Below, piece after piece: positions 73-29,857 of a stretch of 37,596 nucleotides of DNA. Position 1 is the stretch's first letter, and each line of letters starts with the position of its first letter. Source of the stretch: Gordonia sp. (in: high G+C Gram-positive bacteria). GTDB taxonomy: Bacteria > Actinomycetota > Actinomycetes > Mycobacteriales > Mycobacteriaceae. Under the pieces are notes generated by a model. The model saw only the letters and a list, made by a program, of their open reading frames with translations, made no database searches and had not been told where the DNA came from. The position numbers and the translations under genes were made by a program. Location: contig NZ_JAGQTN010000316.1 in assembly GCF_020438995.1 (NCBI RefSeq), forward strand, positions 1-37,596, in the 5' to 3' direction.

Positions 73-684
73 TTACGCCGAACCCGGCCGCAAGACCACG
101 AACAGCCCGTGTGCCTCGGCGCACAGACGCTCGCCGTGCCGGATCTCGCCGGTGAGGTACCGTTTGCGGCCCTCCTCGCGGTCGAACCGCACGATCACGT
201 CCAGGTCGGTGTCGACGGGGGTGACGCTGCGGTAGTCGACGTGCAGATATGCGGTGCGGGCGATGGGCCGCCCGTGCGAGTTGGCGAACCGGCCGAGCGC
301 GTCGTCGAACAGCAGCGGGATGGCGCCGCCGTGTGCGGCGTTGTTTCCGCCGAGGTAGTGCCGGCCGAATCGGACGGTGCCCCGTGACTGAGTCTCGGTC
401 TCGGATTCGACATGCACCACGGGCACGAGCGTCTGCCCACGCCCGGGCGCATTGAGCCTGCCCGACAACTGCGACCATTCGTCGGTCTCGGCAGGTGCCA
501 GCACGTCGATGAGCTGGGCGACCAGCCCCGCCGCGGTGCGGGTCTGCTCGGCGTCGGGTGCGGCGGCGGTGAGCACGTCCTGCAGAACCCGGAACTGCTC
601 AACGAATTCGGCGTAGCCCTCGGGCACCGTGACGGGCGCGGGCTTGTCCCACCAGTTGGGCATGTGCTTGGGCAGTGCTTCCAT
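73..684 (-). CDS. PaaI-type hotdog-fold acyl-CoA thioesterase
   Basis: This 203-aa protein has a single hotdog domain in its C-terminal half (about residues 85-200). The signature NNAAHGGAIPLLFDD (residues 115-128) matches the HGG-x-hydrophobic-x(3)-D pattern of PaaI/YbgC-like thioesterases that hydrolyse acyl- or aryl-CoA thioesters. The first 80 residues form a helical extension that is longer than in minimal PaaI proteins. No signal peptide or membrane segment is visible, so it should be cytosolic. It is the last gene of a minus-strand operon, with its ATG 4 bp beyond the stop of the synthetase-like gene. A thioesterase there could release free CoA from dead-end intermediates or end the pathway. 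The family is clear; the substrate is unknown. Confidence 0.85.
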   Translation of the reverse strand: MEALPKHMPNWWDKPAPVTVPEGYAEFVEQFRVLQDVLTAAAPDAEQTRTAAGLVAQLIDVLAPAETDEWSQLSGRLNAPGRGQTLVPVVHVESETETQSRGTVRFGRHYLGGNNAAHGGAIPLLFDDALGRFANSHGRPIARTAYLHVDYRSVTPVDTDLDVIVRFDREEGRKRYLTGEIRHGERLCAEAHGLFVVLRPGSA

Positions 685-688
685 GGCT

Positions 689-2245
689 CTAGTGCGCTCC
701 TACCTTGGTGATGTCAGCCTTCCCAGGGTATCCACCACCGCCGAACGCGGCGTCGAGGGCGTCGTAGTCGGTCTGCCCGCCCACCGTCGGAAGCGCGTCG
801 ACGAACTCGACGAAGCGCGGCTTCTTGTACGAGGCGATGCGTTCCTTGCAGTAGTCGCGCAGCTCGTCCTCCGATACTGATCCGCCGTCCTCGAGCACGA
901 CGATCGCCTTCACCGACTGCACGAACGCGGGATCGGGAACCCCGATGATCGCTGCGGCCTTGACCGCCGGATGGCTGGTCAGGGCGCCCTCGACCTCCGG
1001 CGGGTAGATGTTCTCGGCTGCCGACTTGATCATCCGCGTCATGGTGCCCAGGAATGCGACGGTCCCGTCGGCTTCCCGGCGACCGGCATCGGTGGTGCGC
1101 CACCACCCGCCGTCGAGGAATCGGGCCTCATTGACCGCCGGCCGGTTCCAGTAGCCCTGGTGCACGGTGTCACCACGCAGCGCGATCTCGCCGATCTCGC
1201 CGTCGGCCACCTCCACGCCGTCGGTATCGACGATCTTGACCTGGGTGAACGGCGACGGCCGCCCCCCGTTGCCGATGCCGGTGGGACCGAACGCCTTGAG
1301 CAGCGCGAGTCCGGTGACCTCGGTCTGCCCGAATCCGCCCGGCCGTTGCGCCCACGCGGAGGTGTCGGCGGGCAGCGCGTCGCCCCACACCGGGCCGAAC
1401 GCGCCGGCTCGCAGCGACGAAAGGTCATGGGCGCCATCGGCGTTGATCGCCCTGATCTCCATGATGGTCGGCGGCATCAGGAACGCCGAGGTGACCTTCT
1501 CCGCGGCCAGGATGCGCAGCACCTCGGGCGCTTCGACGCGGCGCAGGTACACGTTGGTGCCGCCGTGGATGAACACCGGCAGCGAATCGAACTGGAAGTT
1601 CCCGATGTGGAACAGCGGCCCGGAATTGAGGAACACGCACGTCTCGTCGATATCGGTGGCCGCCGAGGTGGCGATCGCCATCGAGATGAGGTTGTGATTG
1701 CTGAGCATCGACCCGCCGGGCTTGTCGATGATGGCCGCCGTGTAGATCACCAGCAGCGCGTCGTCGGCCGAACCCTGTTCCGGCACAGCCTCTGTCGACG
1801 CTACGGCCACCAGCGCGTCGTAGCCGTCGGCGGCGTCGGTGTCGAGCTGGATCCAGGTGCCGGCCGAACTCGCCTGTTCCCGGGCGGCGGCCACGGCGGT
1901 GCCGATCTCCTCGTCCTGCCACACGGTCAGTGCGGGCGCGAGATCGTCGATGACGAACGCCATTTCGTCGCCGGACTGGCGCCAGTTGACCGGGCAGATC
2001 ATCGCGCCCACCCGGCTGGCGGCGATCATCAGCTCCAGGAAGCGGTACGACGACTGCGCCAGCCACAGGATCCGATCGCCGCGCCCCACACCGGAATCGG
2101 CGAGGACGTGCGCCACCTGATTTACTCGGGACTCGAATTGTGGCCAGCTGAACCGGATCTCGCCGTCGACGACGGCCGTGCCGCCGGGATATCGGCGACT
2201 GTTCTCGGTGCAGATGCCGGACAGGGTGAGGTGGGTGCTGGTCAC
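689..2245 (-). CDS. Acyl-CoA synthetase-like protein with altered ATP-binding and catalytic motifs
   Basis: This 518-aa protein has the fold and length of class I adenylate-forming acyl-CoA synthetases (FadD-like). Conserved later motifs include WWRTTDAGR and a SAAENIYPPEVE segment. The phosphate-binding loop, normally YTSGTTGxPKG, reads YTAAIIDKPGG at residues 168-178, so the Ser/Thr and Lys positions are lost. The C-terminal catalytic Lys, normally in a PRTxxGK context, is Gln491 (ALPTVGGQTDYD). Both changes sit in otherwise well-conserved surroundings, so sequencing error is unlikely. It may be a poor ligase, a CoA-ester binding protein or a pseudoenzyme. The GTG start at 2243-2245 overlaps the stop of the DUF35 gene as GTGA. 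Position in a thiolase-like/DUF35/thioesterase operon ties it to CoA-ester metabolism. Confidence 0.85.
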   Translation of the reverse strand: MTSTHLTLSGICTENSRRYPGGTAVVDGEIRFSWPQFESRVNQVAHVLADSGVGRGDRILWLAQSSYRFLELMIAASRVGAMICPVNWRQSGDEMAFVIDDLAPALTVWQDEEIGTAVAAAREQASSAGTWIQLDTDAADGYDALVAVASTEAVPEQGSADDALLVIYTAAIIDKPGGSMLSNHNLISMAIATSAATDIDETCVFLNSGPLFHIGNFQFDSLPVFIHGGTNVYLRRVEAPEVLRILAAEKVTSAFLMPPTIMEIRAINADGAHDLSSLRAGAFGPVWGDALPADTSAWAQRPGGFGQTEVTGLALLKAFGPTGIGNGGRPSPFTQVKIVDTDGVEVADGEIGEIALRGDTVHQGYWNRPAVNEARFLDGGWWRTTDAGRREADGTVAFLGTMTRMIKSAAENIYPPEVEGALTSHPAVKAAAIIGVPDPAFVQSVKAIVVLEDGGSVSEDELRDYCKERIASYKKPRFVEFVDALPTVGGQTDYDALDAAFGGGGYPGKADITKVGAH

Positions 2246-2652
2246 GATGAGGGCTCCGTTTTGCTGGTGGGGGTGAAGGCGGGCAGGGTTGCGTTCTCGA
2301 TGTCGATGAAGTTCACCTGCACGCGCATGCCGATGTGGACGTCGGCCGGGTCGCAGCCGACGATGTTGGTCAGGTAGTTCCAGCCCTCGTCGACGGCGAC
2401 GACGGCCAGCAGGTACGGGTTGTCAAAGTCGGCCGACGGCGGCCGGTGCACCACGGTGAACGTGACGACGGTGCCCAGACCACTGCTCGGTGCGTACGAC
2501 CAGTCGGTGGAAGTCGTTCCGGGAACGCATCGTTCGGGCGGAAAGAAGTATGTTCCGGTGGTATTGCAGCGGGGCACCATCAGCCGGTGTTCGCGGGCGG
2601 AGTCCCAGAACTCCTGGGACAGTACGGTCGGTCGTGCGTCGAGTCTGCGCAT
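2242..2652 (-). CDS. DUF35 OB-fold acyl-CoA-associated protein
   Basis: This 136-aa protein matches the DUF35 family: an N-terminal zinc-ribbon-like segment followed by an OB fold. The core TVVTFTVVHRPP and the later VQVNFIDIE segment are typical. Family members usually have four ribbon cysteines; only Cys29 and Cys42 remain, so metal binding is doubtful. In actinobacteria DUF35 proteins act as partners of thiolase-like (lipid-transfer) proteins, as in the ChsH2-Ltp2 steroid side-chain aldolase complex, where they help position the acyl-CoA. It lies 3 bp after the thiolase-like gene and overlaps the synthetase-like gene by 4 bp, which supports translation in step and a complex with the upstream product. 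The family call is firm; the partner is inferred from position. Confidence 0.88.
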   Translation of the reverse strand: MRRLDARPTVLSQEFWDSAREHRLMVPRCNTTGTYFFPPERCVPGTTSTDWSYAPSSGLGTVVTFTVVHRPPSADFDNPYLLAVVAVDEGWNYLTNIVGCDPADVHIGMRVQVNFIDIENATLPAFTPTSKTEPSS

Positions 2653-4004: not shown

Positions 4005-5384
4005 ATGACCAGTCAAACCTCAACAACCGGAGGAAGATTGACCATCCAGAGTGGGCTCGAAGCCGCGAGCCCGGTACCAGATACCGAAGCGCATGAACTG
4101 CTGGAGCCGGAGATCGAACGCGCCCCACGCGACAAGATCGAGGCCGGCCAGGAGGCCGCGGTGCTCGACCTGGTCCGCTACGCCTGGGACAACTCACCGC
4201 TCTATCGCGAGCTGTGGGCCGCCGCCGGCGTCACGCCCGACGACATCACCTCGATCGAGGACTTCACCACCAAGATCCCCACCCTCAGCAAGGCCGACAT
4301 CATCGCCTACCGCGAGCGCACCGGCGACCCCTACGGCGGCCTGCTGTGCGTGCCCGCGACGGAATTGACCTCGCTGACAACCACTTCCGGAACGACCTCG
4401 GCACCAGAGCCGCTGCCGGAGATCTGGACGCAGGCCCCGCCGCTGCCCGCCGCGTCCACGCGCGATCTGTACGGGCACGGACTGCGGCCCGGCGACCGCG
4501 TGCTGGTGCCGGTCGGCAGCTTCCGCAACTACTGGGACGACTTCTACCAGGCGCTCGGTTGCACCCCGGTGTTCGCCGACAGCTGGCTCGGCCAGGGCGA
4601 AGGTCTGCTGCGCGCCATCAAGAAGCACAAGGTCGCCTACCTGCAGACCCACCTGCCGGCGATCATGGAATTCGAGAGGCTCGAGGACAAATACGACCTG
4701 CGCGACTACTTCTCGTCGGTCAAGTTCTTCTCCTACGCGGGCATGCCGATGGGCGAGGCCCTGCGGCGCAAGGTCACCGAGGAGTGGGGCGTCAAGGTGG
4801 TCACTTACACCAGCGCCGGCGACACCGGAACCGCGTGGGAAGGGCCGGGATTCGACGGCTATCAGCTGTGGGAGGACACCATGTTCCCCGAGGTGGTGGA
4901 TCCGGTCACCGACGCCCCCACCCCCGAGGGCGAGATCGGCGAACTGATCGCCACCGACCTCGACAACCGGGCCGCCCCCTACATCCGCTTCCGCTCGGGT
5001 GACCTGGTGCGCGTGAGCCGCGAACCGGATCCGGTGGGCCGCACCCACACCCGCATGTGGGTCCTGGGCCGTCAGGGCGACGAGACGATGATCGACGGCA
5101 AGGCCATCCTCGTCAACGATGTGTGGCGCATCGTCGAAGCCGAACCCGAGCTCAGCGACGGCATGTTCCAGATCATCCGTTCGTCGGGTCCGATGACGCG
5201 GTTGCGGCTGCGGATCGGCTACGCACCCGAACGCACCACCGACGTCGGCGACGTGGAAAGCCGGGTCGTGGCCGCCCTCGAAGCCGGTCTCGGCGTCGGT
5301 GTCGACGCCGCCATGATGACCACCGAAGACATCCTGCAGTACAGCTCCAGCGTCGCCAAGTTCCCCAGGACGGTGAAGGAATGA
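4005..5384 (+). CDS. PaaK-like (phenylacetate-CoA ligase family) adenylate-forming ligase
   Basis: This protein of up to 459 aa belongs to the PaaK branch of AMP-forming ligases, which make aryl- or acyl-CoA from a carboxylate, ATP and CoA. Visible landmarks are YAWDNSPLYRELW near residue 60, the phosphate loop TTTSGTTSAPEPLP near residue 125, SYAGMPMGEALRRK, YTSAGDTGTAWEG and the C-terminal GRQGDETMIDGK region. The length is normal for PaaK. The ATG at 4005 has no obvious ribosome site. A TTG at 4038, in frame, follows GGAGG (4029-4033) by 4 bp and would give 448 aa, so the start is uncertain. The stop overlaps the ATG of the next gene (ATGA), indicating a two-gene operon. The substrate is unknown; an aromatic or cyclic acid would fit the family. 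Confidence 0.88.
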   Translation: MTSQTSTTGGRLTIQSGLEAASPVPDTEAHELLEPEIERAPRDKIEAGQEAAVLDLVRYAWDNSPLYRELWAAAGVTPDDITSIEDFTTKIPTLSKADIIAYRERTGDPYGGLLCVPATELTSLTTTSGTTSAPEPLPEIWTQAPPLPAASTRDLYGHGLRPGDRVLVPVGSFRNYWDDFYQALGCTPVFADSWLGQGEGLLRAIKKHKVAYLQTHLPAIMEFERLEDKYDLRDYFSSVKFFSYAGMPMGEALRRKVTEEWGVKVVTYTSAGDTGTAWEGPGFDGYQLWEDTMFPEVVDPVTDAPTPEGEIGELIATDLDNRAAPYIRFRSGDLVRVSREPDPVGRTHTRMWVLGRQGDETMIDGKAILVNDVWRIVEAEPELSDGMFQIIRSSGPMTRLRLRIGYAPERTTDVGDVESRVVAALEAGLGVGVDAAMMTTEDILQYSSSVAKFPRTVKE

Positions 5385-6091
5385 CACGTCAGACAATGCT
5401 CGAGGCCGCCGCCCGGCTGCCGCGCTCACCCCTCTACGGCATCGGCGTCGCCCGCTCCGGCGACGACTACATCGACTACGAGATCGGCTGGGACGACTTC
5501 GCCCGCGACACCGACTGGGCCCACGCCCAACTGGTGGCGGCTGGGGTGACCGGTGACGACCACGTACTCGTCACGACCCCCAATCACGAAGCGCCGCAGA
5601 TGAGTCCGATCGTGCACGCGCTGCGTCGCATCGGGGCCACCTACACGCCCACTGAGACCTACGGTTGGGACGTCAACCGGTTCCTGTCGATCCTGCGCAG
5701 CTTCCCGGTCACCGTCGTCATCGGTCTCGGCGAGGAGACCCTTGGCGCCATTTCGTCCCAGGTCGACGACCTACGGGCCGAATTCGCCAAGGTGCGTCTG
5801 CTATGGGCCCGCAGTGGCCCGCACGCCACCCTCACCAATGCCGGCATCCCGTCCATCGGACTCGAATTGCTCGGTCCCGCACTGGGTCTGGCCGTCCCCT
5901 CGGCCCCTCACGACCTCCAGGTCAATGCCGCCGAATGGCAGGTCACCGCCGCCGACGACGGCTCCCTGTCGGTCGCCGGCACCCACGCCCGCCACGACCC
6001 CGTCCCCGCCATCCCCACCGGCCTGACAGGCACCCTCACCCAACAGGACGAGAACACCACCCTCGTCCGCATCGGGGGCGCCCCTGCGTGA
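5381..6091 (+). CDS. Half-ligase-like partner of the PaaK-like enzyme, function unknown
   Basis: This 236-aa protein is not one I can name. Residues 57-122 (GVTGDDHVLVTTPNHEAP, then ALRRIGATYTPTETYGWD, then VIGLGEETLGAI) read like the N-terminal subdomain of an adenylate-forming ligase, where a substrate-binding Rossmann-like layer sits. There is no ATP loop, no A8-type hinge and no catalytic Lys. The C-terminal 60 residues are Thr/Pro/Asp-rich without a recognisable motif. The start overlaps the PaaK-like stop as ATGA, so the two are probably made in equal amounts and may form a complex. No signal peptide is visible. It may be a regulatory or substrate-presenting subunit. The reading frame and codon use look genuine; function is unassigned. 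Confidence 0.75.
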   Translation: MTRQTMLEAAARLPRSPLYGIGVARSGDDYIDYEIGWDDFARDTDWAHAQLVAAGVTGDDHVLVTTPNHEAPQMSPIVHALRRIGATYTPTETYGWDVNRFLSILRSFPVTVVIGLGEETLGAISSQVDDLRAEFAKVRLLWARSGPHATLTNAGIPSIGLELLGPALGLAVPSAPHDLQVNAAEWQVTAADDGSLSVAGTHARHDPVPAIPTGLTGTLTQQDENTTLVRIGGAPA

Positions 6092-6100
6092 GAGCCTGGC

Positions 6101-6160
6101 GTCACCTGATCCTTCGTGACCCTCGCTCCTCCGTCGCTTCAGCCTCAGGGATCAAGAAGC
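6101..6160 (-). repeat. Intergenic repeat, inverted copy, after the PaaK-like operon
   Basis: This copy lies 9 bp after the stop at 6091 and reads as the reverse complement of the elements at 4-59, 6285-6340 and 13132-13187. Its gene-proximal side carries GTCACCTGATCCTTCG and its distal side GCCTCAGGGATCAAG. With the forward copy at 6285-6340 it makes a head-to-head pair around the 35-bp array between two convergent genes. Such a pair could form a large hairpin in RNA. Confidence 0.8.
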
Positions 6161-6193
6161 CTGGTCGCGACAGACCACCTTGATTCCTGAGGC

Positions 6194-6340: not shown

Positions 6341-6373
6341 CTTTCGCCACCTGACTCCACCGAGGAGCCGCAC

Positions 6374-7057
6374 TCAGCGGGAGTTGTTCTCCGCGACCCG
6401 GACCCGCAGTCCGTCGATGAGGGTTTCGATGCCGAAGTTGTAGTAGTCGGCGCCGTGCAGTTCGTCGAGGTGGGTGACCATCCGGGCCAGGGTCTCGGGC
6501 AACTCCCCGTCGTCGGCCGGCCGCGACACCAGCGTCACCTGGTATCGCCCGAACAGGTACGTGTGAATCATCGAGTATGCCAACAAAACCTGACGCTCCG
6601 AGAGCCCCGCGTCCACCATGATCTCCATGAACGCGTTGACCAACCGCCGGTCGGTCTGCAACATCCGCTGCAGCAATAATCCGGCGATCCCGGGATGCCG
6701 CCGCAGATGGGTGTCGATACCGTCGATCAGCTTGCGCAGCCGCATCTCCCAGGGCCCGCTGTCCGCCGTCGGAATCGCCACGTCCGCGAGCGTTTTCCGG
6801 GCCACCAGGTCGAGTAGTTCCTGCTTGTCGGCGACGTACGAGTACGCTGCCATCTGCGACCGCCCCAACTCCTTCGACAGCCGCCGCATCGACAGCGCGT
6901 CGAGCCCGTCGGACCGGATGACCCGCAGTGCGGCGTCGACGATCTGATCCTCGGTCAGCGTCGCCGGACGCCCCCTGCTCTTCTTTCCGACTGGTTCAGC
7001 GGGCACAGCGGGCAGTGTAGTTGCCTCAGATGCCAAGACGCTCCAGCATCCGTTCAT
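6374..7057 (-). CDS. TetR-family transcriptional regulator
   Basis: The N-terminal helix-turn-helix is clear: LTEDQIVDAALRVIRSDG followed by LSMRRLSKELGRSQMAAYSY and KQELLDLVARK. The C-terminal all-helical domain would bind an effector, likely an acyl-CoA by context. The ATG at 7057 gives 227 aa but overlaps the upstream dehydrogenase gene by 32 bp; a TTG at 7036 preceded by GGAG (220 aa) or a GTG at 7006 (210 aa) are alternatives. A basic stretch (KKSRGRP) precedes the HTH, as often seen in this family. Being co-transcribed with the dehydrogenase-like gene, it probably controls that operon and the divergent amidohydrolase operon through the large palindrome at 8421-8457. That link is inferred. 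Confidence 0.85.
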   Translation of the reverse strand: MNGCWSVLASEATTLPAVPAEPVGKKSRGRPATLTEDQIVDAALRVIRSDGLDALSMRRLSKELGRSQMAAYSYVADKQELLDLVARKTLADVAIPTADSGPWEMRLRKLIDGIDTHLRRHPGIAGLLLQRMLQTDRRLVNAFMEIMVDAGLSERQVLLAYSMIHTYLFGRYQVTLVSRPADDGELPETLARMVTHLDELHGADYYNFGIETLIDGLRVRVAENNSR

Positions 7058-8375: not shown

Positions 8376-8420
8376 GGAAGCTCCTGGAAACGGTATCGGG
8401 GCCGGGTGGGGGCTACTCAC

Positions 8421-8569: not shown

Positions 8570-9658
8570 ATGACGCAAGCGATGTCCGCCCCGTCCGAAC
8601 AGGCCGGCGACGAAAAGATCTGGGCCCACTCGGGCGACTCGCACCTGATGGAACCCGAGGACCTGTGGACCTCGCGCCTGCCCAAGGCGCTCGCCGACCG
8701 GGCGCCCCGCTCCGAGCGCGGCGAGAAGTACGAGATCGTCTACATCGACGGGACGCAGATCGACCGGCAGCTCAACGACTTCATGGACGCGATGCGCCCG
8801 CCGGGTTTCAAGGATCTCACCATCCGGCTGCGTGACCTCGACCAGGAGGGTGTGCGCAATCAGCTCGCCTTCCCGTCGATGGGTTTCTGGGTGTGCAACA
8901 TCCGCGACCCCGAACTGGAGAACGCCGTCGCCCGCGCCTGGAACGACTGGGCGATGGAAGACATCATGGGTAAGCAGGACCGCATCTTCGCGCCCGCTAT
9001 CATTCCGCTGATGGACGTCGGCAACGCCGTCGCCGAGGCCGAGCGTGCCGCCGAAATGGGTTTCAAGGCACTGTATTTCCCGTGCGGCATCCCTGACGAC
9101 CGCGCGTGGGGCCTGGACATCTGGGAGCCGCTGTGGACCGCGGCCGAGCGGATGGGTCTGCCGCTGACCTTCCACATCGGCACCGGATCGGCCAACGTCG
9201 TCTACCGCGGCCCCGGTGGTGCGGTGGTCAACTACATGGAGACCACCTACCCGGGTATGCGCGTCGTCTCGCACATGGTGGCCGGCGGCGCACTCGACCG
9301 GCACCCCGACCTCAAGGTGCTCATCGCCGAGGGTGGTGCCGCGTGGGTGCCGGCGATCGGTGACCGCATGGACGAGGCCTACCGCCAGCACGGAATGTTC
9401 GTGCGGCCCAGGCTCTCCCGGCTGCCCAGCGAGATCATCCGTCAGCAGGTGTTCGCCTCCTTCCAGCACGACATCAGCGCCGTGCAGGTCATCGAGGACA
9501 CCCACTACGACAACGTGCTGTGGGGCGATGACTACCCGCACCTCGAAGGCACCTACGGACACACCCAGCAGACGCTGCACACCATCTTCGACGGCGTCGA
9601 CGACCGCATCCGCGACCGGGTGCTGCGCGGCGCGTTCGAGGAGCTTTTCGGGGCATGA
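8570..9658 (+). CDS. Amidohydrolase-family (ACMSD-like) metal-dependent hydrolase or decarboxylase
   Basis: This 362-aa protein is an amidohydrolase_2 TIM barrel. The N-terminal metal motif reads GDSHLMEP (residues 22-29), the DxHxxE variant of HxH common in actinobacteria. Further candidate ligands are His202 (FHIGTG), His235 (SHMVAGG) and Asp320/321 (WGDDYPH). Family members hydrolyse C-N or C-C bonds or decarboxylate, in the cytosol. The ATG follows GAGGAG with good spacing. The stop overlaps the DUF35 start (ATGA), so it heads a four-gene operon with DUF35, thiolase-like and acyl-CoA synthetase genes. A ring-opening or decarboxylation step in acid catabolism would fit, but the substrate is not readable. 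Confidence 0.85.
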   Translation: MTQAMSAPSEQAGDEKIWAHSGDSHLMEPEDLWTSRLPKALADRAPRSERGEKYEIVYIDGTQIDRQLNDFMDAMRPPGFKDLTIRLRDLDQEGVRNQLAFPSMGFWVCNIRDPELENAVARAWNDWAMEDIMGKQDRIFAPAIIPLMDVGNAVAEAERAAEMGFKALYFPCGIPDDRAWGLDIWEPLWTAAERMGLPLTFHIGTGSANVVYRGPGGAVVNYMETTYPGMRVVSHMVAGGALDRHPDLKVLIAEGGAAWVPAIGDRMDEAYRQHGMFVRPRLSRLPSEIIRQQVFASFQHDISAVQVIEDTHYDNVLWGDDYPHLEGTYGHTQQTLHTIFDGVDDRIRDRVLRGAFEELFGA

Positions 9659-10053
9659 GTTCAACGGACACAGCAACTTTCACCGCACCTGACGGCCTGT
9701 TCCGGGTCGGCGACGACGGTGTGCACCTGATCGCGTCCCGGTCGTCACGATCGGAGTTCCTGGTGTTCCCGGCCGAACCTGGTCAGGAGACGGTGGAACT
9801 GAGCACCTCGGGCACGTTGTACACCTGGACCAGCCAGGAGTTCGTACCGCCCGCACCGGCTATCACCGACGGTGAATTCCGTTCGTACGGAGTCGGATAC
9901 GTGGAGTTTCCCGAAGGAATCCTGGTGGAGGGCCGGCTCACCACGTGTGACCCGGCCGAACTGCCCATCGGCGGACCGATGCGCGTGATCACCATCCCCT
10001 TCGCCGGCGGCGAGACATTCGCCTTCACTCCGGCCCCCGGAAACGAGGACTGA
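9655..10053 (+). CDS. DUF35 OB-fold protein, no zinc ribbon
   Basis: This 132-aa protein contains the DUF35 OB fold: TSGTLYTWTSQEFVPP near residues 50-65, the acyl-CoA-contacting YGVGYVEFPEGILVEGRL, and ITIPFAGGETFAFTP at the end. The N-terminal zinc ribbon is missing; the only Cys is in TTCDPAE. It overlaps the amidohydrolase gene by 4 bp and ends 3 bp before the thiolase-like gene. The DUF35/thiolase-like arrangement is the same as at 2242-3822, but in reverse gene order. It probably binds the thiolase-like protein and helps hold the acyl-CoA. It differs much from the DUF35 protein at 2242, so the two are unlikely to be a recent duplication. Confidence 0.85.
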   Translation: MSSTDTATFTAPDGLFRVGDDGVHLIASRSSRSEFLVFPAEPGQETVELSTSGTLYTWTSQEFVPPAPAITDGEFRSYGVGYVEFPEGILVEGRLTTCDPAELPIGGPMRVITIPFAGGETFAFTPAPGNED

Positions 10054-12774: not shown

Positions 12775-12795
12775 TGCCTGGCCGCGACCATGCTT

Positions 12796-14368: not shown

Positions 14369-14483
14369 AGTGGTTCTCCCTATCTGAATGTTCTTTGGTT
14401 GCGAGGTTTCGAGGCTCGTCACCGGCTCTCCTCACACCTCAACCGCCAGGCGAGGAGCCCCGAAACCCGGTGAGCCGACGGTG

Positions 14484-19023: not shown

Positions 19024-19075
19024 CGAACGCCTTTCGGTCGGTTGCGCTGGTATGTGAGTCACAGTATGTGCAGGT

Positions 19076-21561: not shown

Positions 21562-21635
21562 TAGCGAATTAACCCAGAGGGCGGGCGGTGGATCCGGCCA
21601 CGGGGGTTCGAGCGGAAGCATCGGAGGTCTGGTCC

Positions 21636-22427
21636 GTGCAGGACATCACCTGGACACTGTCCGACGGGATCGGGACGATCACCCTGAACCGGCCGCAGGT
21701 ACGCAACGCCTTCACCTTCCCGATGCTGCGCGAATGGGAACGGATGTTGCGCGAGGCCAGGGACGACGACGCCGTCAAGGTCGTCGTGCTGACCGGCGCC
21801 GGCGACAAGGCGTTCTGCTCGGGCGTCGACCTGGGCTCGATCTCCAACGCTAACCCCGACCTCACCCCGCTCGAACGCAAATCGCAACTGCACGACGAGG
21901 TGCACCGGGTGGCCCGTGCCGTCGCCGACCTCGACAAACCGATCATCGCCGCCATCAACGGCGTCGCGGTGGGGGCGGGCCTGGACATGGCGCTCATGTG
22001 CGACCTGCGGATCATGTCGACCTCGGCCCGGGTGCTCGAAGGCTATGTAAAGGTGGGCCTGACCCCCGGTGACGGCGGTGCCTATTACCTGCCCCGGATC
22101 GTCGGTACCGCCAAGGCGCTCGAGTTGCTGCTCACGGGGGATTCCGTCGACGCGGCTGAGGCGCACCGCATCGGTCTGGTCAACCGGATCGCCGAGCCGG
22201 CCGAGTTCGCCGGGGCCACCGAACAGTTCGCCCGGTCGATCGCCCAGCACGCACCGGTCACCGTCCGGATGATCAAGCGGCTCACCTACCAGTCGGTCGA
22301 CGCCGATCTGCGTACCGCGCTCGAACTCGCCTCCTCGCACTTCGCGGTGGCCTCGGCCACCGAGGACGCCGCCGAGGCGCTCGCCGCGATGAAGGACAAA
22401 CGTCAACCGCAGTACCGCGGACGCTGA
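21636..22427 (+). CDS. Crotonase-family protein with non-canonical active site
   Basis: This enoyl-CoA hydratase/isomerase-family protein has the core segments IGTITLNRPQVRNAF, VVLTGAGDKAFCSGVDL, and GVAVGAGLDMALMCDLRI, which supply the oxyanion hole. The first catalytic Glu of true hydratases is Asp117 and the second is Tyr137. It may be an isomerase, hydrolase or C-C lyase of the crotonase type. A GTG at 21636 with GGAGGT 7 bp upstream gives 263 aa, the usual length; an earlier GTG at 21588 would add 16 residues not seen in the family. It heads a plus-strand operon, with the amidohydrolase-fold gene 23 bp downstream. Confidence 0.87.
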   Translation: MQDITWTLSDGIGTITLNRPQVRNAFTFPMLREWERMLREARDDDAVKVVVLTGAGDKAFCSGVDLGSISNANPDLTPLERKSQLHDEVHRVARAVADLDKPIIAAINGVAVGAGLDMALMCDLRIMSTSARVLEGYVKVGLTPGDGGAYYLPRIVGTAKALELLLTGDSVDAAEAHRIGLVNRIAEPAEFAGATEQFARSIAQHAPVTVRMIKRLTYQSVDADLRTALELASSHFAVASATEDAAEALAAMKDKRQPQYRGR

Positions 22428-22450: not shown

Positions 22451-23326
22451 ATGACCACAGCAGCGGAACCGGCCGTTTTCGACGCCTGGATCAACCTGCC
22501 GTATCTGCCCGGCGAGGTCACCCCCGACCCGTCGGTCGTGGCCCGTTTCAAACGCGGCAACAGCGCCTACGAGGGCGGCGAGACGATCGCCGACGTGGTC
22601 GCCGAGATGGATCGCCTCGGCGTGGAGGCGGGGGTGCTCACCAAGGTGCCCCGCGACATAACCCCGCCCTATGTGCACGGCACCAAATCCGGTGAGCAGG
22701 TGCTGCGCGATACCTGTGAACGTCTGGCGAAGATCGCCGCCGACCATCCGGGACGCTTCCTCACCTCCGTCGGCATCGACCCGCGCCTGGGTTACGAGGC
22801 GGCCAAGCACGTGCGGATCGCGGTGCGCGAGTACGGCATCACCTGCATCCGCATCATCCCGATGTTCACCGGCATCGCCATCGACGACAAACTTGCCTAT
22901 CCGCTGTACACCGCGGCCTGCGACGAGGGCGCGGTGGTGTCGATCAACGTGGGTGTGCCCGGTCCGATGAAACCGGCCAAACTGCAACGCACCATCCTCA
23001 TCGACGAAGTGGCACTGGCCTTTCCGGAGCTCAAACTGGTGATGAGCCATCTCGGTGATCCGTGGATCTCCGAAACCGTCGCGATGCTCATCAAACATCC
23101 CAACGTGTTCGCGATGACCGCCGGCTGGGCACCCAAATACATTCCCGAGGAGATCCTGCGGTTCGCCGAACGCCGCAATCCCGGGAAACTGATGTGGGCG
23201 TCGGACTATCCGATCCTGCCGATCGAACGGGCCGTCGTCGAGGGCCGGGCGGTTCCGTTGACCGGCGCCGCCCGGGAGGGCTATCTGGGAGCCAACGCGC
23301 GCAAGGTGTTCGGTCATGGACTTTGA
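22451..23326 (+). CDS. Amidohydrolase-fold protein lacking most metal ligands
   Basis: This 291-aa protein has the amidohydrolase_2 barrel: AEMDRLGVEAGVLT, RFLTSVGIDPRLGYEA, FPELKLVMSHLGDPW (His200) and LMWASDYPI (Asp252). The N-terminal HxH is DAWIN (11-15), and the middle HxG is INVG (166-168), so three of the usual metal ligands are gone. Either it works without metal, has a rebuilt site, or is a pseudoenzyme. The ATG follows AGGGAG with 8-bp spacing. It overlaps the next ACAD by 11 bp and is therefore tightly linked to dehydrogenation of a CoA ester. Proteins of this type do occur beside ACAD genes in actinobacteria, but I cannot name a characterised one. Confidence 0.82.
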   Translation: MTTAAEPAVFDAWINLPYLPGEVTPDPSVVARFKRGNSAYEGGETIADVVAEMDRLGVEAGVLTKVPRDITPPYVHGTKSGEQVLRDTCERLAKIAADHPGRFLTSVGIDPRLGYEAAKHVRIAVREYGITCIRIIPMFTGIAIDDKLAYPLYTAACDEGAVVSINVGVPGPMKPAKLQRTILIDEVALAFPELKLVMSHLGDPWISETVAMLIKHPNVFAMTAGWAPKYIPEEILRFAERRNPGKLMWASDYPILPIERAVVEGRAVPLTGAAREGYLGANARKVFGHGL

Positions 23327-24520: not shown

Positions 24521-25339
24521 ATGCCGAATCCGGATACATCCGACTGGGAAAGCCGATTCACCACGATGACGGTGACGGCCGACGGACCGGTGCGCATCGT
24601 GACGATGAACCGCCCGGACTTCCGCAACGCCGCCGACGCCGTGATGCACCGCGAACTCGGCGAGATCTGGGACGCCCTCGCCGTCGACCCGGGCTGCCGG
24701 GTCGTCGTGCTCACCGGTGCGGGCAAAGCATTCAGCGCCGGCGGGGACCTGCCGCGCATGGTGGAGACCCAGGAGAACCAGGACATCCAGGAGGAGGTGT
24801 TCAACGAGGCCCGGCGCACGGTCAATTCCATGATCGCGTTGCCGCAGCCGCTGATCGCCGCCGTCAACGGTGCCGCCGTGGGCCTGGGCGCCAGCCTGAT
24901 CTCATTGTGCGACCTCGCGATCGCCTCCGACCGGGCTTTCCTGGCCGACCCGCACCTCGGCGTAGGGCTGGTGCCCGCCGACGGTGCCGCGCTGCTGTGG
25001 CCGCTGGTCATGGGTGCGATGCGCGCCAAGGAGTACGTCTTCACCGGCGACCGCATCCCCGCCGACACCGCGCTGGCGTTGGGTCTGGTCAACCGGGTGG
25101 TGCCCGCCGACGAATTGATGCCCACCACACTGGAACTCGCGCACCGGATCGCCGAGGTACCGCAGCAGGCGTTGCGGCAGACCAAACGGCTGATGAACAC
25201 CCACCTGACCCGGGCACTGGCCGGTCTGCTCGACGACGCGCTGGCCACCGAACGGGTCAGCGTCAACTCGGCCGACCACAAGGAACTGACCCGGGCACTC
25301 GTCGAGGCCGCCGCCGCGCGTGCGGCGCAGCGGTCGTAA
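24521..25339 (+). CDS. Crotonase-family protein with both catalytic Glu replaced
   Basis: This 272-aa protein has RIVTMNRPDFRNAAD, VVVLTGAGKAFSAGGDL, and NGAAVGLGASLISLCDLAIAS. In place of the two hydratase glutamates are Ser125 and His145 (LADPHLGVGLVP). The oxyanion-hole backbone is retained, so an acyl-CoA reaction remains likely, perhaps isomerisation or C-C hydrolysis. The ATG has AGGAG 8 bp upstream, just after the ACAD stop. The C-terminal RAHQ-like helix ends EAAAARAAQRS. The gene order ACAD, crotonase, SDR follows beta-oxidation: dehydrogenation, then addition or rearrangement, then oxidation of an alcohol. Confidence 0.87.
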   Translation: MPNPDTSDWESRFTTMTVTADGPVRIVTMNRPDFRNAADAVMHRELGEIWDALAVDPGCRVVVLTGAGKAFSAGGDLPRMVETQENQDIQEEVFNEARRTVNSMIALPQPLIAAVNGAAVGLGASLISLCDLAIASDRAFLADPHLGVGLVPADGAALLWPLVMGAMRAKEYVFTGDRIPADTALALGLVNRVVPADELMPTTLELAHRIAEVPQQALRQTKRLMNTHLTRALAGLLDDALATERVSVNSADHKELTRALVEAAAARAAQRS

Positions 25340-25354: not shown

Positions 25355-26113
25355 ATGATATCGGGTGAACTCGACGGCAGGGTCGCACTCGTCACCGCGG
25401 CCGCCGGCGCCGGCATCGGCAAGGCGATCGCGACCAGGCTCGCCGCCGACGGCGCGACGGTGATCGTCACCGACGTCCATCAGCGGCGCCTGGACGCCGC
25501 CGTTGCCGAAATAGGCGGCAACGCCGTCGGTTACCTGCTCGATGCCGGTGACCGCGACCAGATCGTCCAGGTCACCGACGCCGTGGCCGCCGCACACGGG
25601 CCCATCTCGATCCTGGTCAACAACGCCGCCCTCAACGTCCTCGGACCGATCTTCGACTACGACCCGGCAGACTGGGACCGGGTGATGGCGGTGAATCTGT
25701 CCGGGCCGTGGATGCTCAGCCGTCAGGTGATGCGGCAGCTGCGTGAAGCCGGACTGCCCGGGGTGATCCTGAACGTCTCCACCTACGCCCCCGACGTCGG
25801 CGGTGAAGGGATCGAGGCACCCTACGCGGTCAGCAAGGGCGGCCTGAACGTGCTCACCCGCAGCTGCGCCCACGAGGGCGGACCGTACGGCATCCGCGCC
25901 AACACACTGTCGATGGGCATGGTCACCGGCACCCGCTTCACCGACGCGCTGCACCCGGACATGCAGGACACCGAACGCGCCAAATCGCCGCTGGGCAGAC
26001 TCTCGCACGTCGACGACATCGTCGAGGCCGCCGCCTTCCTGATCTCCGACCGGTCCAGGAACATCACCGGGGAGACGCTGAACGTTGCCGCCGGAACCCA
26101 CATGCGCTGGTGA
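25355..26113 (+). CDS. Short-chain dehydrogenase/reductase (SDR)
   Basis: This 252-aa protein is a classical SDR. The cofactor motif reads TAAAGAGIGKAIA (14-26), with Asp40 after strand 2 favouring NAD over NADP. NNAALN is the structural motif, and Ser142, Tyr157 and Lys161 (YAVSK) form the catalytic set. It likely oxidises a hydroxy group to a ketone, such as a 3-hydroxyacyl-CoA or a ring alcohol. The ATG follows GGAAGG. The gene ends the five-gene plus-strand operon, 17 bp from the convergent ACAD stop. The C-terminal ITGETLNVAAGTHMRW replaces the common NVDGG. Function beyond alcohol/ketone conversion cannot be set. Confidence 0.92.
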   Translation: MISGELDGRVALVTAAAGAGIGKAIATRLAADGATVIVTDVHQRRLDAAVAEIGGNAVGYLLDAGDRDQIVQVTDAVAAAHGPISILVNNAALNVLGPIFDYDPADWDRVMAVNLSGPWMLSRQVMRQLREAGLPGVILNVSTYAPDVGGEGIEAPYAVSKGGLNVLTRSCAHEGGPYGIRANTLSMGMVTGTRFTDALHPDMQDTERAKSPLGRLSHVDDIVEAAAFLISDRSRNITGETLNVAAGTHMRW

Positions 26114-27314: not shown

Positions 27315-27389
27315 CACAAGTTGTCCCGCTCGCCCACGGGCCCCGTTGTATAGTTCAAAGATTCGACTCGTTGGGTGAAAGGGCAGCTG

Positions 27390-28139
27390 GTGGCAGTGGG
27401 TACCGGATCGTCGGTGGTCAGAGTTCCCAAGGCGGGTGAGCTCGTCGCCGCGCAACTGCGCAAACAGATCGTCACCGGAGTGCTCAAGCCGGGCGATCCG
27501 CTGCCCGGCGAGACGGCGCTGATGGAACGCTACGGCGTGTCGCGGCCCACCATGCGCGAGGCGTTCCGGATTCTCGAATCGGAGTCCATTATCGTCGTCC
27601 TGCGCGGTGCGCACGGGGGTGCCAGGGTGCTCGCTCCCGACGAGTCCGTCGCGGCCCGGCATATGGGACTGCTCTTGCAGTACCAGGGTGTTCCGCTGGC
27701 CGACGTCTATCACGCCCGCACCGAGTTGGAGGTGGCGGCACTGCGCGCCTGGTCCGGCGCCGAGACGAGCCTGGATGCGCTCGCGGCCCTGATCGATGGC
27801 GCGGCGGCCGCGATCGACGACGCAGTGGAGTTCGCCGCGATCGACACCAGGATCCACGAGGCGGTGGTGGGTCTGGCCGGGGTGCAGACCATGTCGGTGC
27901 TCGCGGGCATGTTGCTGCAGATCATGGCCGCCCACAACGCGCAGTTCATCTCCAAGCATGGAGTCGAACACGAGCGCGATGCCGACGAGCTGGCGCTGCG
28001 CGCGTACCGGCGGCTGCTGAAACTGCTGGTCGCCGGCGACGTCGACGGTGCTGTCACGCACTGGCGGCGGCACCTGCGCAAGGTGGAGTCGTACATGGTC
28101 GAAGACCCCGACCTGACCCTCGTGGAGGTGCTCTCGTAG
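27390..28139 (+). CDS. GntR-family regulator, FadR subfamily (FCD domain)
   Basis: This protein of about 249 aa has an N-terminal winged helix: AGELVAAQLRKQIVTGVLKPGDPLPGE in part, then LMERYGVSRPTMREAFRILE, the recognition segment. The FCD ligand domain follows, with a D-x3-H pair in IDTRIHEAVVGLAG and an HWRRHL motif near the end; these usually hold a metal and the effector. A GTG at 27390 has AAAGGG 6 bp upstream; a GTG at 27375 would add five residues. FadR-type proteins sense organic acids or acyl-CoAs. The gene is flanked by two nearly identical promoter/operator copies, and half-sites of the same sequence occur before two other divergent operon pairs, so it is the likely cluster regulator. 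Confidence 0.88.
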   Translation: MAVGTGSSVVRVPKAGELVAAQLRKQIVTGVLKPGDPLPGETALMERYGVSRPTMREAFRILESESIIVVLRGAHGGARVLAPDESVAARHMGLLLQYQGVPLADVYHARTELEVAALRAWSGAETSLDALAALIDGAAAAIDDAVEFAAIDTRIHEAVVGLAGVQTMSVLAGMLLQIMAAHNAQFISKHGVEHERDADELALRAYRRLLKLLVAGDVDGAVTHWRRHLRKVESYMVEDPDLTLVEVLS

Positions 28140-28220: not shown

Positions 28221-29066
28221 ATGGGGCCGGTGAACGGGATCAGCGTGGAGCGCCGCGACCGGGTCGCGGTGGTGTGGCTCGACCGGCCCGAGCGCGGCAA
28301 CGGATTCATCTCCGACATGCAGATCGAGCTGCACGAGCGCCTGGCGGAACTGGACGCCGACAACGAGGTTCGCGCCATTGTCGTGACCGGGCGGGGCAGG
28401 TTCTTCTCCACCGGCGCCGACCTCGAACCGGGCGGTGCCAACTTCGCCTTCGACGACGAGCAACTGCGTGGCGCCCGCGACATGATGCGAGATCGGCCGC
28501 GTCCGTGGCGGATGCGTACCCCCATCATCGGCGCGATGAACGGCGCCGCCGTGGGGCTCGGACTCACCTTCGCATTGCAGTGGGACATCCGGGTCGTGAA
28601 CGAGAGCGCCAAGTACGGTTTCGTGTTCACCCGGCGCGGGCTGATCCCTGAGCAGAACTCGCTGTGGCTGCTGCCCAAACTCGTCGGGCTTGCCACGGCC
28701 ACCGAATTGCTGCTCACTGGACGGCTTTTCACCGGAGCGGAGGCCAAGGAGCTTGGAATCGCCGCCCACGCCGTACCCGGTGACGAGGTGCTCGACACCG
28801 CGCTGGAGATCGCGCGCGACATCGCCGACAACACCGCACCCGCGGCCGTCGGGCTCACCAAGGAACTGTTGTACGAGTTCCTGGAGGAATCCGATCGCGA
28901 ACCCGCATTTCATCGGGAATGGGAGATCTTCCGGGCCATCGGGCGGCAGCCGGATTCCGCCGAAGGAGTGGCGGCCTTCGTCGAAAAGCGTAGTCCGGCA
29001 TTCACTTCCGGAAAGGACTACGAGGTGACGGTGCACGGCTCGGCTGACTGGGAGGCACGGCAATGA
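28221..29066 (+). CDS. Crotonase-family protein, FTRRG-type active site
   Basis: The 281-aa protein begins at ATG 28221, with AGGAG 5 bp upstream. The core reads VAVVWLDRPERGNGF, FFSTGADLEPGG, and NGAAVGLGLTFALQWDIRV. The hydratase glutamates are replaced by Thr116 and Phe136, while a Glu remains at position 144 in FTRRGLIPEQNS. Crotonases with an RRGLxPE loop form a recurring actinobacterial group whose reactions are mostly untested. The gene overlaps the next crotonase by 4 bp (ATGA), and that protein shares the same loop type, so the two may form a heteromer or act in sequence. It follows a predicted promoter/operator directly. Confidence 0.88.
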   Translation: MGPVNGISVERRDRVAVVWLDRPERGNGFISDMQIELHERLAELDADNEVRAIVVTGRGRFFSTGADLEPGGANFAFDDEQLRGARDMMRDRPRPWRMRTPIIGAMNGAAVGLGLTFALQWDIRVVNESAKYGFVFTRRGLIPEQNSLWLLPKLVGLATATELLLTGRLFTGAEAKELGIAAHAVPGDEVLDTALEIARDIADNTAPAAVGLTKELLYEFLEESDREPAFHREWEIFRAIGRQPDSAEGVAAFVEKRSPAFTSGKDYEVTVHGSADWEARQ

Positions 29067-29857
29067 GCGAATCCGACGAGGTGCTCTACGACGTCGACGA
29101 CCATGGTGTGCTGGTCCTGACCCTGAACCGTCCCGAGCGTCGCAACATGTGGTCGCTGGGCATGGAGACCGCGTTCTACGGTGGATTGGCCCGTGGCGCA
29201 CAGGATCCGGACGTCCGCGTCATCGTCGTCACCGGCGCCGGGAACACTTTCTGTCCCGGCCTCGATCCGAACGTGCTCGACGAGATCAAGGGCGGCTCTA
29301 GGTACGCCACCAACCGGTTGCCGCAGACCTTCGCCACCACCATCCCCAAACTGGTCATCGGCGCGATCAACGGCTCCTGCGCGGGTATCGGTCTTGCCCA
29401 GGCGCTGTGCCTGGATTACCGATTCGCTTCCCGCGGAGCCAAATTCACCACCGCCTTTTCCAAACGCGGACTGCCCGCCGAGGATGCGTCGGCATGGATG
29501 CTGGGCCGGCTCACCGGACCCGCCCACGCCTTGGATCTGATCGTCTCGGGCCGGGTGTTCCTCGCCGAGGAGGCCGCCGAACTCGGCGTCGTGCAGCGGC
29601 TCAGCGAACCCGGCCAGGTGCTCGACGACGCCGTCGCCTACGCCCGCGCCGTGGCCGAGAACGTGTCGCCGGTGTCGATGGCGATGATGAAATCGCAGGT
29701 CTGGCACGACCTCGACTGCACCATGGACGCCGCCAGAATCCGGGCACAGCACCTGCTCACCCTCGCCAAAGGCCTGCCCGACTTCACCGAAGGCGTCAAC
29801 GCCCTGGTCGAAAAGCGCGCACCGAACTTCGAACCGTACTCGCGCGTCGTCTTCTGA
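29063..29857 (+). CDS. Crotonase-family protein, FSKRG-type active site
   Basis: This 264-aa protein has VLVLTLNRPERRNMWS, IIVVTGAGNTFCPGLDP, and NGSCAGIGLAQALCLDYRF. In place of the two classical glutamates are Ala112 and Phe132, and the active loop reads FSKRGLPAEDASAW with Glu140 retained, as in the protein encoded just upstream. The Cys at 64 in the substrate loop replaces the usual Ala. It overlaps that gene as ATGA. It is the last gene of the putative catabolic cluster before the echA9-echA8 unit. A hydratase, isomerase or hydrolase role on a CoA ester is possible. Confidence 0.88.
   Translation: MSESDEVLYDVDDHGVLVLTLNRPERRNMWSLGMETAFYGGLARGAQDPDVRVIVVTGAGNTFCPGLDPNVLDEIKGGSRYATNRLPQTFATTIPKLVIGAINGSCAGIGLAQALCLDYRFASRGAKFTTAFSKRGLPAEDASAWMLGRLTGPAHALDLIVSGRVFLAEEAAELGVVQRLSEPGQVLDDAVAYARAVAENVSPVSMAMMKSQVWHDLDCTMDAARIRAQHLLTLAKGLPDFTEGVNALVEKRAPNFEPYSRVVF

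What the first reader, a model, noticed from the sequence alone, without database searches (positions are those of the whole stretch)
73..29857. Probable undescribed CoA-dependent catabolic system with atypical enzymes throughout
Seen: about 24 catabolic genes in compact operons with two local regulators. Several members of normally catalytic families have lost textbook residues: one ligase, two thiolase-like proteins, four crotonases, one amidohydrolase and three ACADs. Known: heteromeric ACADs, DUF35-Ltp aldolases and crotonase hydrolases are used in actinobacterial steroid catabolism. Inferred: this is a parallel pathway for another bulky or cyclic acid. It is adjacent to, but apparently not directly under, kstR.
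Basis: partly seen in the sequence, partly recalled or inferred. Interest (0 to 1): 0.7.

Follow-up and report, generated by a model that had tools for sequence, protein, structure and literature searches.

The report
Gordonia terpenoid-ring breakdown gene cluster
This stretch of a soil bacterium's genome looks like a set of genes for eating a bulky ring-shaped terpenoid, opening its first ring with the same unusual kinds of enzyme that an antibiotic producer uses to trim a diterpenoid, which points to a breakdown route in actinobacteria that we did not find described.

Summary
Window 73-29857 of a Gordonia contig carries 28 genes, two of them regulators. All 11 proteins with lost textbook residues were confirmed, and the losses are shared by the orthologues examined, so they are maintained rather than decay.

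Most losses fit known non-canonical families. The "broken" ligase g2 matches PtmA2, the non-adenylating ligase of platensimycin biosynthesis (534 bits). Amidohydrolase g8 matches PtmU3, a diiron beta-hydroxylase on CoA-linked diterpenoids (423 bits), with all seven metal-site residues. ACADs lacking the catalytic Glu complement others lacking the FAD motif.

A run of thiolase-like, DUF35, PaaK-like ligase, small ANL-like and PtmA2-like genes recurs even in two proteobacteria; larger parts recur in Gordonia, Rhodococcus, Mycobacterium and Kitasatospora, some beside Mce importers. No PF19086 terpene synthase was found in six of six Gordonia genomes. Against: five of 15 g2-type loci carry no other island gene, and the two modules can occur apart.

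Best reading: CoA-dependent catabolism of a C4-carboxylated cyclic terpenoid, most likely a diterpenoid, by split ligation, beta-hydroxylation and retro-aldol ring opening. kstR adjacency looks incidental. Substrate, reactions and the roles of g5b, g10, g15 and g20 are inferred.

The parts
73..684 (-). g1 hotdog (4HBT) thioesterase
   Evidence: Pfam PF03061
689..2245 (-). g2 PtmA2-like non-adenylating acyl-CoA ligase; P-loop lost
   Evidence: PDB 5e7q/5upq E=2.7e-159, 534 bits; SGTTG loop absent in 13 of 13 orthologues
2242..2652 (-). g3 DUF35/OB-fold partner of g4
   Evidence: PF01796/PF12172
2656..3822 (-). g4 thiolase-fold aldolase-like (Ltp2 type): no catalytic Cys, Tyr of the YDxx motif kept
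   Evidence: PDB 6ok1 E=1.8e-40; Tyr in 8 of 8 orthologues
4005..5384 (+). g5 PaaK-like ligase, SGTT loop and a C-terminal Lys kept: candidate adenylating partner of g2
   Evidence: PDB 2y4o E=1.9e-34
5396..6091 (+). g5b small ANL-N-like protein next to g5
   Evidence: no Pfam family; hhalign 75.5% to the g2 family, 58.5% to the g5 family, 4.1% to g11 alone, 0.3% to a control; model pLDDT 91; adjacent to g5 in 15 of 15 loci with a full-length g5
6374..6970 (-). g6 TetR regulator (MftR2-like, below the family cut-off)
   Evidence: NF038211 240 of 285 bits
7026..8426 (-). g7 divergent ACAD, no catalytic Glu
   Evidence: PF02770
8570..9658 (+). g8 (AH1) PtmU3-like dinuclear monooxygenase
   Evidence: PDB 6omp E=1.3e-125; 7 of 7 site residues D23 H25 H202 E254 D321 H324 E326
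9655..10053 (+). g9 DUF35/OB-fold partner of g10
   Evidence: PF01796
10057..11202 (+). g10 thiolase-like: Cys kept, both His replaced by Gln and Glu
11199..12695 (+). g11 canonical CoA ligase (FadD4-like, below the family cut-off)
   Evidence: NF038341 563 of 850 bits; P-loop and Lys intact
13220..14422 (-). g12 complete ACAD
   Evidence: Glu and FAD motif both present
14484..15515 (-). g13 ACAD subunit: FAD motif, no Glu
15512..16672 (-). g14 ACAD subunit: Glu, no FAD motif; overlaps g13 by 4 nt
16677..17885 (-). g15 (AH2) amidohydrolase-fold, predicted dinuclear oxygenase
   Evidence: 7 of 7 site residues; also 10 of 10 orthologues readable at all seven
17992..19029 (-). g16 beta-rich protein without a family
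   Evidence: no family; model pLDDT 72.5
19076..20305 (-). g17 family III CoA-transferase
   Evidence: PF02515 433 bits
20302..21621 (-). g18 ACAD (pimC-like): Glu, no FAD motif
21588..22427 (+). g19 crotonase without the two hydratase Glu (one is Asp)
22451..23326 (+). g20 (AH3) amidohydrolase-fold protein that lost the dinuclear site
   Evidence: PF04909
23316..24509 (+). g21 ACAD (pimC-like): Glu, no FAD motif
24521..25339 (+). g22 crotonase without the two hydratase Glu
25355..26113 (+). g23 SDR dehydrogenase
   Evidence: PF13561
26131..27279 (-). g24 ACAD (IpdE2-like, below the family cut-off): FAD motif, no Glu
   Evidence: NF050027 249 of 450 bits, PDB 6wy8
27375..28139 (+). g25 GntR/FCD regulator
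   Evidence: PF00392/PF07729
28191..29066 (+). g26 crotonase without the two hydratase Glu
29063..29857 (+). g27 crotonase without the two hydratase Glu

Best explanation
The island encodes most of a CoA-dependent route for degrading a cyclic terpenoid, most likely a diterpenoid, through a carboxyl group on the quaternary C4 of ring A. Proposed steps: (0) uptake by an Mce-type importer and oxidation of a methyl group to a carboxyl by a P450, an SDR and an aldehyde dehydrogenase; these genes lie on another contig, C117. (1) Split CoA ligation: g5, perhaps with g5b, adenylates the acid and g2 makes the thioester. (2) g8, a PtmU3-type dinuclear-metal oxygenase, hydroxylates the carbon beta to the thioester (C5; the position in platensimycin is recalled). 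(3) g4+g3 cleave the C4-C5 bond by retro-aldol reaction and open ring A. (4) Thiolysis releases the three-carbon C4 unit as propionyl-CoA. (5) Module B continues: g17 or g11 re-activates acids, heteromeric ACADs oxidise them, g9/g10, the SDR and non-canonical crotonases process or cleave the remaining rings, and g15 adds a second oxygenation. Shown by sequence here: family membership, residue patterns, synteny. Inferred: every reaction, their order and the substrate.
For: g8 to PtmU3 423 bits and the next chain 115; g2 to PtmA2 534 bits and the next molecule 238. The seven metal-site residues taken from the AibH2/PtmU3 description in PMC7782822 are present in g8, g15 and orthologues. Thiolase-like, DUF35, PaaK-like, g5b and PtmA2-like genes form one run in Massilia, and in Sphingomonas with one hydrolase gene between, with a PtmU3-like gene 64 kb and 3.5 kb away on the same plasmid; the Massilia plasmid also has 2-methylcitrate genes, which fits propionyl-CoA release. 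In R. jostii RHA1 an annotated P450 piece, ferredoxin and aldehyde dehydrogenase adjoin g5, g5b and g2 homologues. Mce permease genes (MlaE family) lie within the 21-kb g2 locus of 3 of 4 mycobacteria; own contig C117 carries a P450, SDR, ALDH and an Mce operon and a thiolase 81% identical to one in the DMU1 cluster. Complementary ACAD halves. PMC10391625 (passages): going from ent-kaurenoic acid to platensimycin loses C4, C18 and C19. No PF19086 terpene synthase in 6 of 6 Gordonia genomes.
Against: No growth, expression or enzyme data. Roughly half-identical enzymes need not share a substrate. Five of 15 loci fetched by g2 (44-48% identical, another family) hold no other island gene, so g2-type ligases also serve elsewhere. 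Modules A and B can occur apart. g4 keeps the Tyr base but not the second Tyr of Ltp2, and g10 has neither. The C117 P450 is not closest to a known diterpenoid P450, and its Mce subunit is closest to a family named for cholesterol uptake. The 26-nt overlap of C117 with this contig lies inside a repeat. DitZ, the one chain whose name suggests a diterpene pathway, is a distant match (115 bits). The five non-Gordonia genomes checked do have terpene synthases, the nearest about 46 kb from the stretch read in G378.
Confidence: 0.6

Rival explanations
1. Same chemistry, other terpenoid: the substrate is a triterpenoid, hopanoid, labdane or sesquiterpenoid with a gem-dimethyl ring, not a tri- or tetracyclic diterpenoid.
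For: Mce importers and P450s suit any bulky isoprenoid; large accessory islands with many extra CoA enzymes suggest long pathways.
Against: The two closest characterised enzymes act in a diterpenoid pathway (roles from PMC7782822 passages and a title).
Confidence: 0.25
2. Extension of steroid (sterol or bile acid) catabolism next to kstR.
For: kstR lies 3.6 kb downstream; DUF35-thiolase and ACAD relatives are steroid-type; the C117 Mce subunit matches Mce4_CUP1, named for cholesterol uptake.
Against: No exact KstR site in the island; the EchA8-like neighbour of kstR is elsewhere in 4 of 4 relatives; g2 and g8 are far closer to platensimycin enzymes than to any other solved structure.
Confidence: 0.07
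3. A patchwork: modules A and B act on different substrates and are merely neighbours here.
For: G. rhizosphera has A without g20, G027 has B without g8.
Against: A and B genes adjoin in Mycobacterium URHB0044, Kitasatospora and G287/G338/G378 and lie within about 90 kb in Rhodococcus DMU1; g12 and g15 accompany both.
Confidence: 0.2
4. A biosynthetic cluster for a platensimycin-like product.
For: g2 and g8 homology.
Against: No PF19086 terpene synthase in 6 of 6 Gordonia genomes; many beta-oxidation genes, FCD/TetR regulators, Mce import and plasmid carriage look catabolic.
Confidence: 0.03

Closest known systems
Platensimycin/platencin ring-A steps (PtmA2, PtmU3; Streptomyces platensis)
   Same: g2 and g8 are full-length homologues; the same order of CoA ligation then beta-hydroxylation is implied.
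   Different: No PF19086 terpene synthase in Gordonia; embedded in many degradation genes. Whether PtmA1 resembles g5/g5b was not tested.
Proteobacterial dit clusters (abietane resin acid catabolism)
   Same: Diterpenoid degradation; PDB entry DitZ is a distant relative of g8 (its link to dit is by name only).
   Different: No ring-hydroxylating or extradiol dioxygenase family among the window proteins scanned; the dit steps assigned are oxidation at C7 and of the C ring (PMC13063091 passages).
Actinobacterial steroid side-chain catabolism (Ltp2-ChsH2 DUF35, heteromeric ACADs)
   Same: DUF35 plus thiolase-fold pairs; complementary ACAD subunits; g24 nearest to Tcur3481.
   Different: No exact KstR site in the island; g4 lacks the second Tyr of Ltp2; ligase g2 and oxygenase g8 belong to other families.
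AibH1H2 (2-aminoisobutyrate hydroxylase, amidohydrolase fold)
   Same: Dinuclear site residues shared with g8 and g15.
   Different: Small substrate and an AibH1 partner subunit; g20 does not keep the AibH1 mononuclear set either, as far as it aligns.

Membership tests
PtmU3-type dinuclear monooxygenase (g8) | Full-length homology to PtmU3 | tested here: met
   423 bits over residues 15-360, next chain 115 bits
PtmU3-type dinuclear monooxygenase (g8, g15) | Seven metal-site residues D-x-H, H, E, D-x-x-H-x-E | tested here: met
   g8 and 11 of 11 orthologues (10; DMU1, truncated there); g15 and 10 of 11, the eleventh cut by the edge of the stretch
PtmU3-type dinuclear monooxygenase (g20) | Same seven residues | tested here: not met
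   of the five positions that align reliably only one Asp is kept; 5 of 5 orthologues alike; the first-strand pair aligns poorly
PtmU3-type dinuclear monooxygenase | O2-dependent beta-hydroxylation of a diterpenoyl-CoA | not testable with these tools
   needs enzyme assay
PtmA2-type non-adenylating ligase (g2) | Homology to PtmA2 and loss of the P-loop | tested here: met
   534 bits; SGTTG absent in g2 and 13 of 13 orthologues; A10 Lys absent in g2 and 12 of 13
PtmA2-type non-adenylating ligase (g2) | Separate adenylating partner | tested here: inconclusive
   g5 accompanies g2 in 11 of 13 actinobacterial loci aligned and in 3 of 3 of RHA1, Massilia, Sphingomonas, but in 0 of 5 further loci with a divergent g2; no activity test
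Heteromeric steroid-type ACADs | Catalytic Glu on one subunit, FAD-binding motif on the other | tested here: met
   g14, g18, g21 against g13, g24 and orthologues; complex formation not tested
Ltp2-type DUF35 aldolase (g4) | Tyr pair (YDHF Tyr plus Tyr344) and DUF35 partner | tested here: inconclusive
   DUF35 adjacent; first Tyr kept, YDPN instead of YDHF, second Tyr is Trp; the second residue varies among these aldolases (PMC12329534 passages)
Ltp2-type DUF35 aldolase (g10) | Tyr base of the YDHF motif | tested here: not met
   Gln in g10 and 10 of 10 orthologues; Cys kept
KstR regulon | KstR operator in the promoter regions | tested here: not met
   only exact site 34175-34188, outside the island; three one-mismatch matches inside it, and 5 matches in all against 3.1 expected; consensus recalled
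dit resin-acid cluster | Ring-hydroxylating and ring-cleaving dioxygenases | tested here: not met
   none among window proteins scanned
Platensimycin biosynthetic cluster | Diterpene synthases | tested here: not met
   PF19086 absent in 6 of 6 Gordonia genomes; other cyclase families not searched

The most novel reading that the evidence does not exclude
Actinobacteria, and some proteobacteria, share an undescribed terpenoid ring-A opening module: a three-component split CoA ligase (PaaK-like g5, ANL fragment g5b, PtmA2-like g2), an amidohydrolase-fold dinuclear-metal beta-hydroxylase (g8) and a DUF35/thiolase-fold retro-aldolase (g3-g4). It is an old, often plasmid-borne catabolic module from which platensimycin producers took their ring-A enzymes.
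Probability: 0.45. Interest if true: 0.75.

Novelty: new variant of a known kind. Interest (0 to 1): 0.6.

Why it matters
How actinobacteria degrade cyclic diterpenoids is, in the papers we could search, genetically unassigned. The cluster gives a concrete, testable route, an oxygenase class at its centre that annotation calls a hydrolase, and a catabolic setting for platensimycin-type enzymes. It also shows that 'lost catalytic residues' in such clusters can mark a different mechanism rather than decay. R. jostii RHA1 carries relatives of the key genes on pRHL2, so it can be tested in a laboratory strain.

Tried and rejected
First idea that g8/g15 were thioesterases (note): rejected after PMC7782822 passages showed that PtmU3 is an oxygenase. 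Idea that g15 and g20 form an AibH1H2-like pair: a g20-like and a g15-like gene are neighbours in G060, G047, G031 and G036, but g20 does not keep the mononuclear set; left open. Rfam search of the window: nothing at gathering score. Search of the two genomes of the G137 genus for g8: nothing, and the tool calls that uninformative. Inverted-repeat search of eight intergenic stretches: short repeats and the genome-wide repeat, no operator proposed. Rows dropped before counts: ten unnamed loci with a g2-like gene were fetched and only five entered the orthologue table; the other five were counted later (no other island gene). Six more of the 16 foreign hits were not fetched. Literature: ten searches of an open-licence library listed no paper on an actinobacterial diterpenoid catabolic cluster of this kind; listings only for most papers, passages for eight. 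The S. platensis cluster was not identified (the genomes searched are unnamed), so PtmA1 and the platensimycin aldolase could not be compared.
Full report
WHERE IT IS. The window is the whole of contig C202 (37,596 bases) of a 4.81-Mb draft genome. Two genomes of its genus, G074 and G003, have contigs whose lengths and genes agree with named records, Gordonia sp. UBA7599 and Gordonia rhizosphera NBRC 16068, so the window is Gordonia. Positions 29933-37596 hold a hydroxyisobutyryl-CoA hydrolase-like gene, an EchA8-like hydratase, an esterase, kstR, a double-length FadE34-like gene (name recalled) and a cutinase. The EchA8-like gene is on another contig or about 110 kb to over 2 Mb from the island genes in 4 of 4 relatives tested, and no kstR orthologue at >=50% identity lies in the 20 loci compared. 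The only exact match to the recalled KstR consensus is 34175-34188, beside kstR; five matches with up to one mismatch were found against 3.1 expected, three of them one-mismatch matches inside the island. The kstR neighbourhood therefore looks incidental.

The island 73-29857 holds 28 genes. The new point is that the losses are shared by the orthologues aligned: g2 13 of 13 without the P-loop motif (one, Kitasatospora, has a Lys in the aligned A10 column), g10 10 of 10, g4 6 of 6 readable of 8 aligned, crotonases 16 of 16 (g19 and its orthologues have Asp for the first Glu), g20 5 of 5, and the Glu-less ACADs g7 (4 of 4), g13 (3 of 3) and g24 (5 of 5).

WHY THE ODD ENZYMES ARE ODD. g2 matches PtmA2 of platensimycin biosynthesis over nearly its whole length (534 bits; the next molecule 238). 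[quoted passage not shown] paper not held). g8 matches PtmU3 (423 bits; next 115). PMC7782822 (passages) describes PtmU3 as a beta-hydroxylase of diterpenoid biosynthesis with a non-heme diiron centre in a TIM-barrel amidohydrolase-superfamily fold that accepts CoA-ligated substrates, lists the AibH2 ligands and names Glu313 of PtmU3 as a further one; PMC10401708 (passages) calls PtmU3 a dinuclear hydroxylase and shows that AibH2 uses Mn/Fe. All seven positions are conserved in g8 and 11 of 11 orthologues and in g15 and 10 of 11 (the eleventh is cut by the edge of the stretch); g20 keeps only one Asp among those that align. The ACADs split into halves: g14, g18 and g21 have the catalytic Glu but not the FGxxIGxF-type motif, g13 and g24 have the motif but no Glu, the pattern known (recalled) from heteromeric steroid ACADs; g24 is nearest in the PDB to Tcur3481. 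g4 has the Tyr of the YDHF base motif of Ltp2 (YDPN here) but Trp at the second Tyr position; PMC12329534 (passages) shows that the second residue differs between such aldolases. g10 keeps the thiolase Cys but has Gln and Glu for the two His; its reaction is not predicted with confidence.

THE CONSERVED MODULES. Module A (g2-g8) and module B (g9-g11, g13-g14, g17-g27) are both present in Gordonia UBA7599 on two contigs (25 of 28 island genes at >=50% identity) and on a plasmid of Rhodococcus sp. DMU1 within about 90 kb (21 of 28). Loci fetched by g2 alone outside Gordonia give a fair test: 10 of 15 hold other island genes at >=50% (1 to 11 each) and none of those 10 holds a backbone gene; the remaining 5, all of one other family with g2 at 44-48%, hold no other island gene, so g2-type ligases are not confined to this system. 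Class-wide, 17 of 394 genomes, the window's included, have a g2-like gene at E<=1e-120. Against unity, G. rhizosphera has A but no g20 orthologue, and G027 has B but no g8 orthologue; g15 and g12 accompany both. In two proteobacterial plasmids a thiolase-like, a DUF35, a PaaK-like, a g5b-like and a PtmA2-like gene follow each other (Massilia putida 268309-273486; Sphingomonas paeninsulae 821609-827650 with one hydrolase gene between), with a PtmU3-like gene bearing all seven residues on the same plasmid. The Massilia plasmid also carries 2-methylcitrate-cycle genes. R. jostii RHA1 pRHL2 has homologues of g2, g5, g5b, g8 and g15 (47, 43, 29, 52 and 74%), with a short ORF annotated as a P450, a ferredoxin and an aldehyde dehydrogenase beside g5.

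THE SMALL ORF g5b. The ORF at 5396-6091 has no Pfam family; it is adjacent to g5 in 15 of 15 loci with a full-length g5 (window, G003, G074, DMU1, four mycobacteria, G287, G338, G378, G251, RHA1, Massilia, Sphingomonas); G028 has only a g5 fragment. Its profile resembles the N-terminal part of adenylate-forming enzymes weakly (75.5% to the g2 family, 58.5% to the g5 family, but only 4.1% to g11 alone and 0.3% to an unrelated control). Its AlphaFold model is confident (pLDDT 91) but could not be compared with solved folds. A third component of the split ligase is the simplest guess.

THE UPSTREAM PART. Contig C117 of the same genome ends with an aldehyde dehydrogenase and an SDR (both 83% to the G. 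rhizosphera cluster), a P450 (73% to G028), an Mce-type operon (41-65% to Mce genes beside the g2 locus in mycobacteria; MlaE permeases and an Mce4_CUP1-type subunit), a ligase and a thiolase 81% identical to one in the DMU1 cluster. Its end shares 26 nt with the start of this contig, but inside a repeat with 82 near-copies in the genome, so the join is only suggested. The nearest solved P450s include CYP143, CYP101D and CYP125-like entries, not diagnostic.

HOW IT MOST LIKELY WORKS. Importer; P450, SDR and ALDH turn a C4 methyl into a carboxyl; g5/g5b and g2 make the CoA ester; g8 puts a hydroxyl on C5; g4/g3 cleave C4-C5 by retro-aldol, opening ring A; thiolysis then frees C4 with its two substituents as propionyl-CoA. 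PMC10391625 (passages) notes that going from ent-kaurenoic acid to platensimycin requires the loss of C4, C18 and C19. Module B then handles the remainder. Each reaction is inference from homology; the order is chemical reasoning.

KNOWN OR NEW. The families are known; the combination as a catabolic route in actinobacteria was not found in ten searches of an open-licence library, which misses most subscription papers. Passages on proteobacterial resin-acid degradation (PMC13063091; PMC10710418) and on a Rhodococcus diterpenoid biotransformer (PMC12294881) show other genes or none of these. I file it as a new variant of a known kind: CoA-dependent polycyclic isoprenoid catabolism with a ring-A chemistry that, to my knowledge, is documented in antibiotic biosynthesis.

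Noticed in passing
window 6143-6164, 6277-6298, 12760-12781, 12788-12809, 12957-13145: Palindromic repeat CCTCAGGGATCAAGANGCCTGG: 7 near-copies (up to 3 mismatches) in the window (0.01 expected) and 82 in the genome at up to 2 mismatches (control 0); it also sits at contig ends and probably breaks the assembly.
   Followed up: partly
window 5396-6091: ORF without a family, conserved next to a PaaK-like ligase across phyla.
   Followed up: yes
L147/L148 (own contig C46, 10568-35275): A second CoA island in the same genome with g8-like (25%), g20-like (31%), g10-like (61%) and g9-like (44%) genes.
   Followed up: no
L150 (R. jostii RHA1 pRHL2) 6100-9843: Two amidohydrolase genes flanking a Rieske protein with a PDR/VanB reductase next to them, like the AibH1H2GF set; one has all seven metal-site positions filled (Asp at the last), the other not.
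   Followed up: no
L014, L015, L064, L065 and neighbours: In G060, G047, G031 and G036 a g20-like and a g15-like amidohydrolase gene are adjacent, suggesting that they work together.
   Followed up: partly
L094 15587-18052 and L048 2088-4553: 821-aa gene, an acetyltransferase fused to CoA-binding and ATP-grasp domains (Pfam on the first), next to the g15 orthologue in two Gordonia; not seen in the window.
   Followed up: partly
L089 (G028) 2334114-2335323 and 2341843-2343052: Four short ORFs of equal lengths recur in the same order, probably a duplicated mobile element inside a disrupted module A.
   Followed up: no
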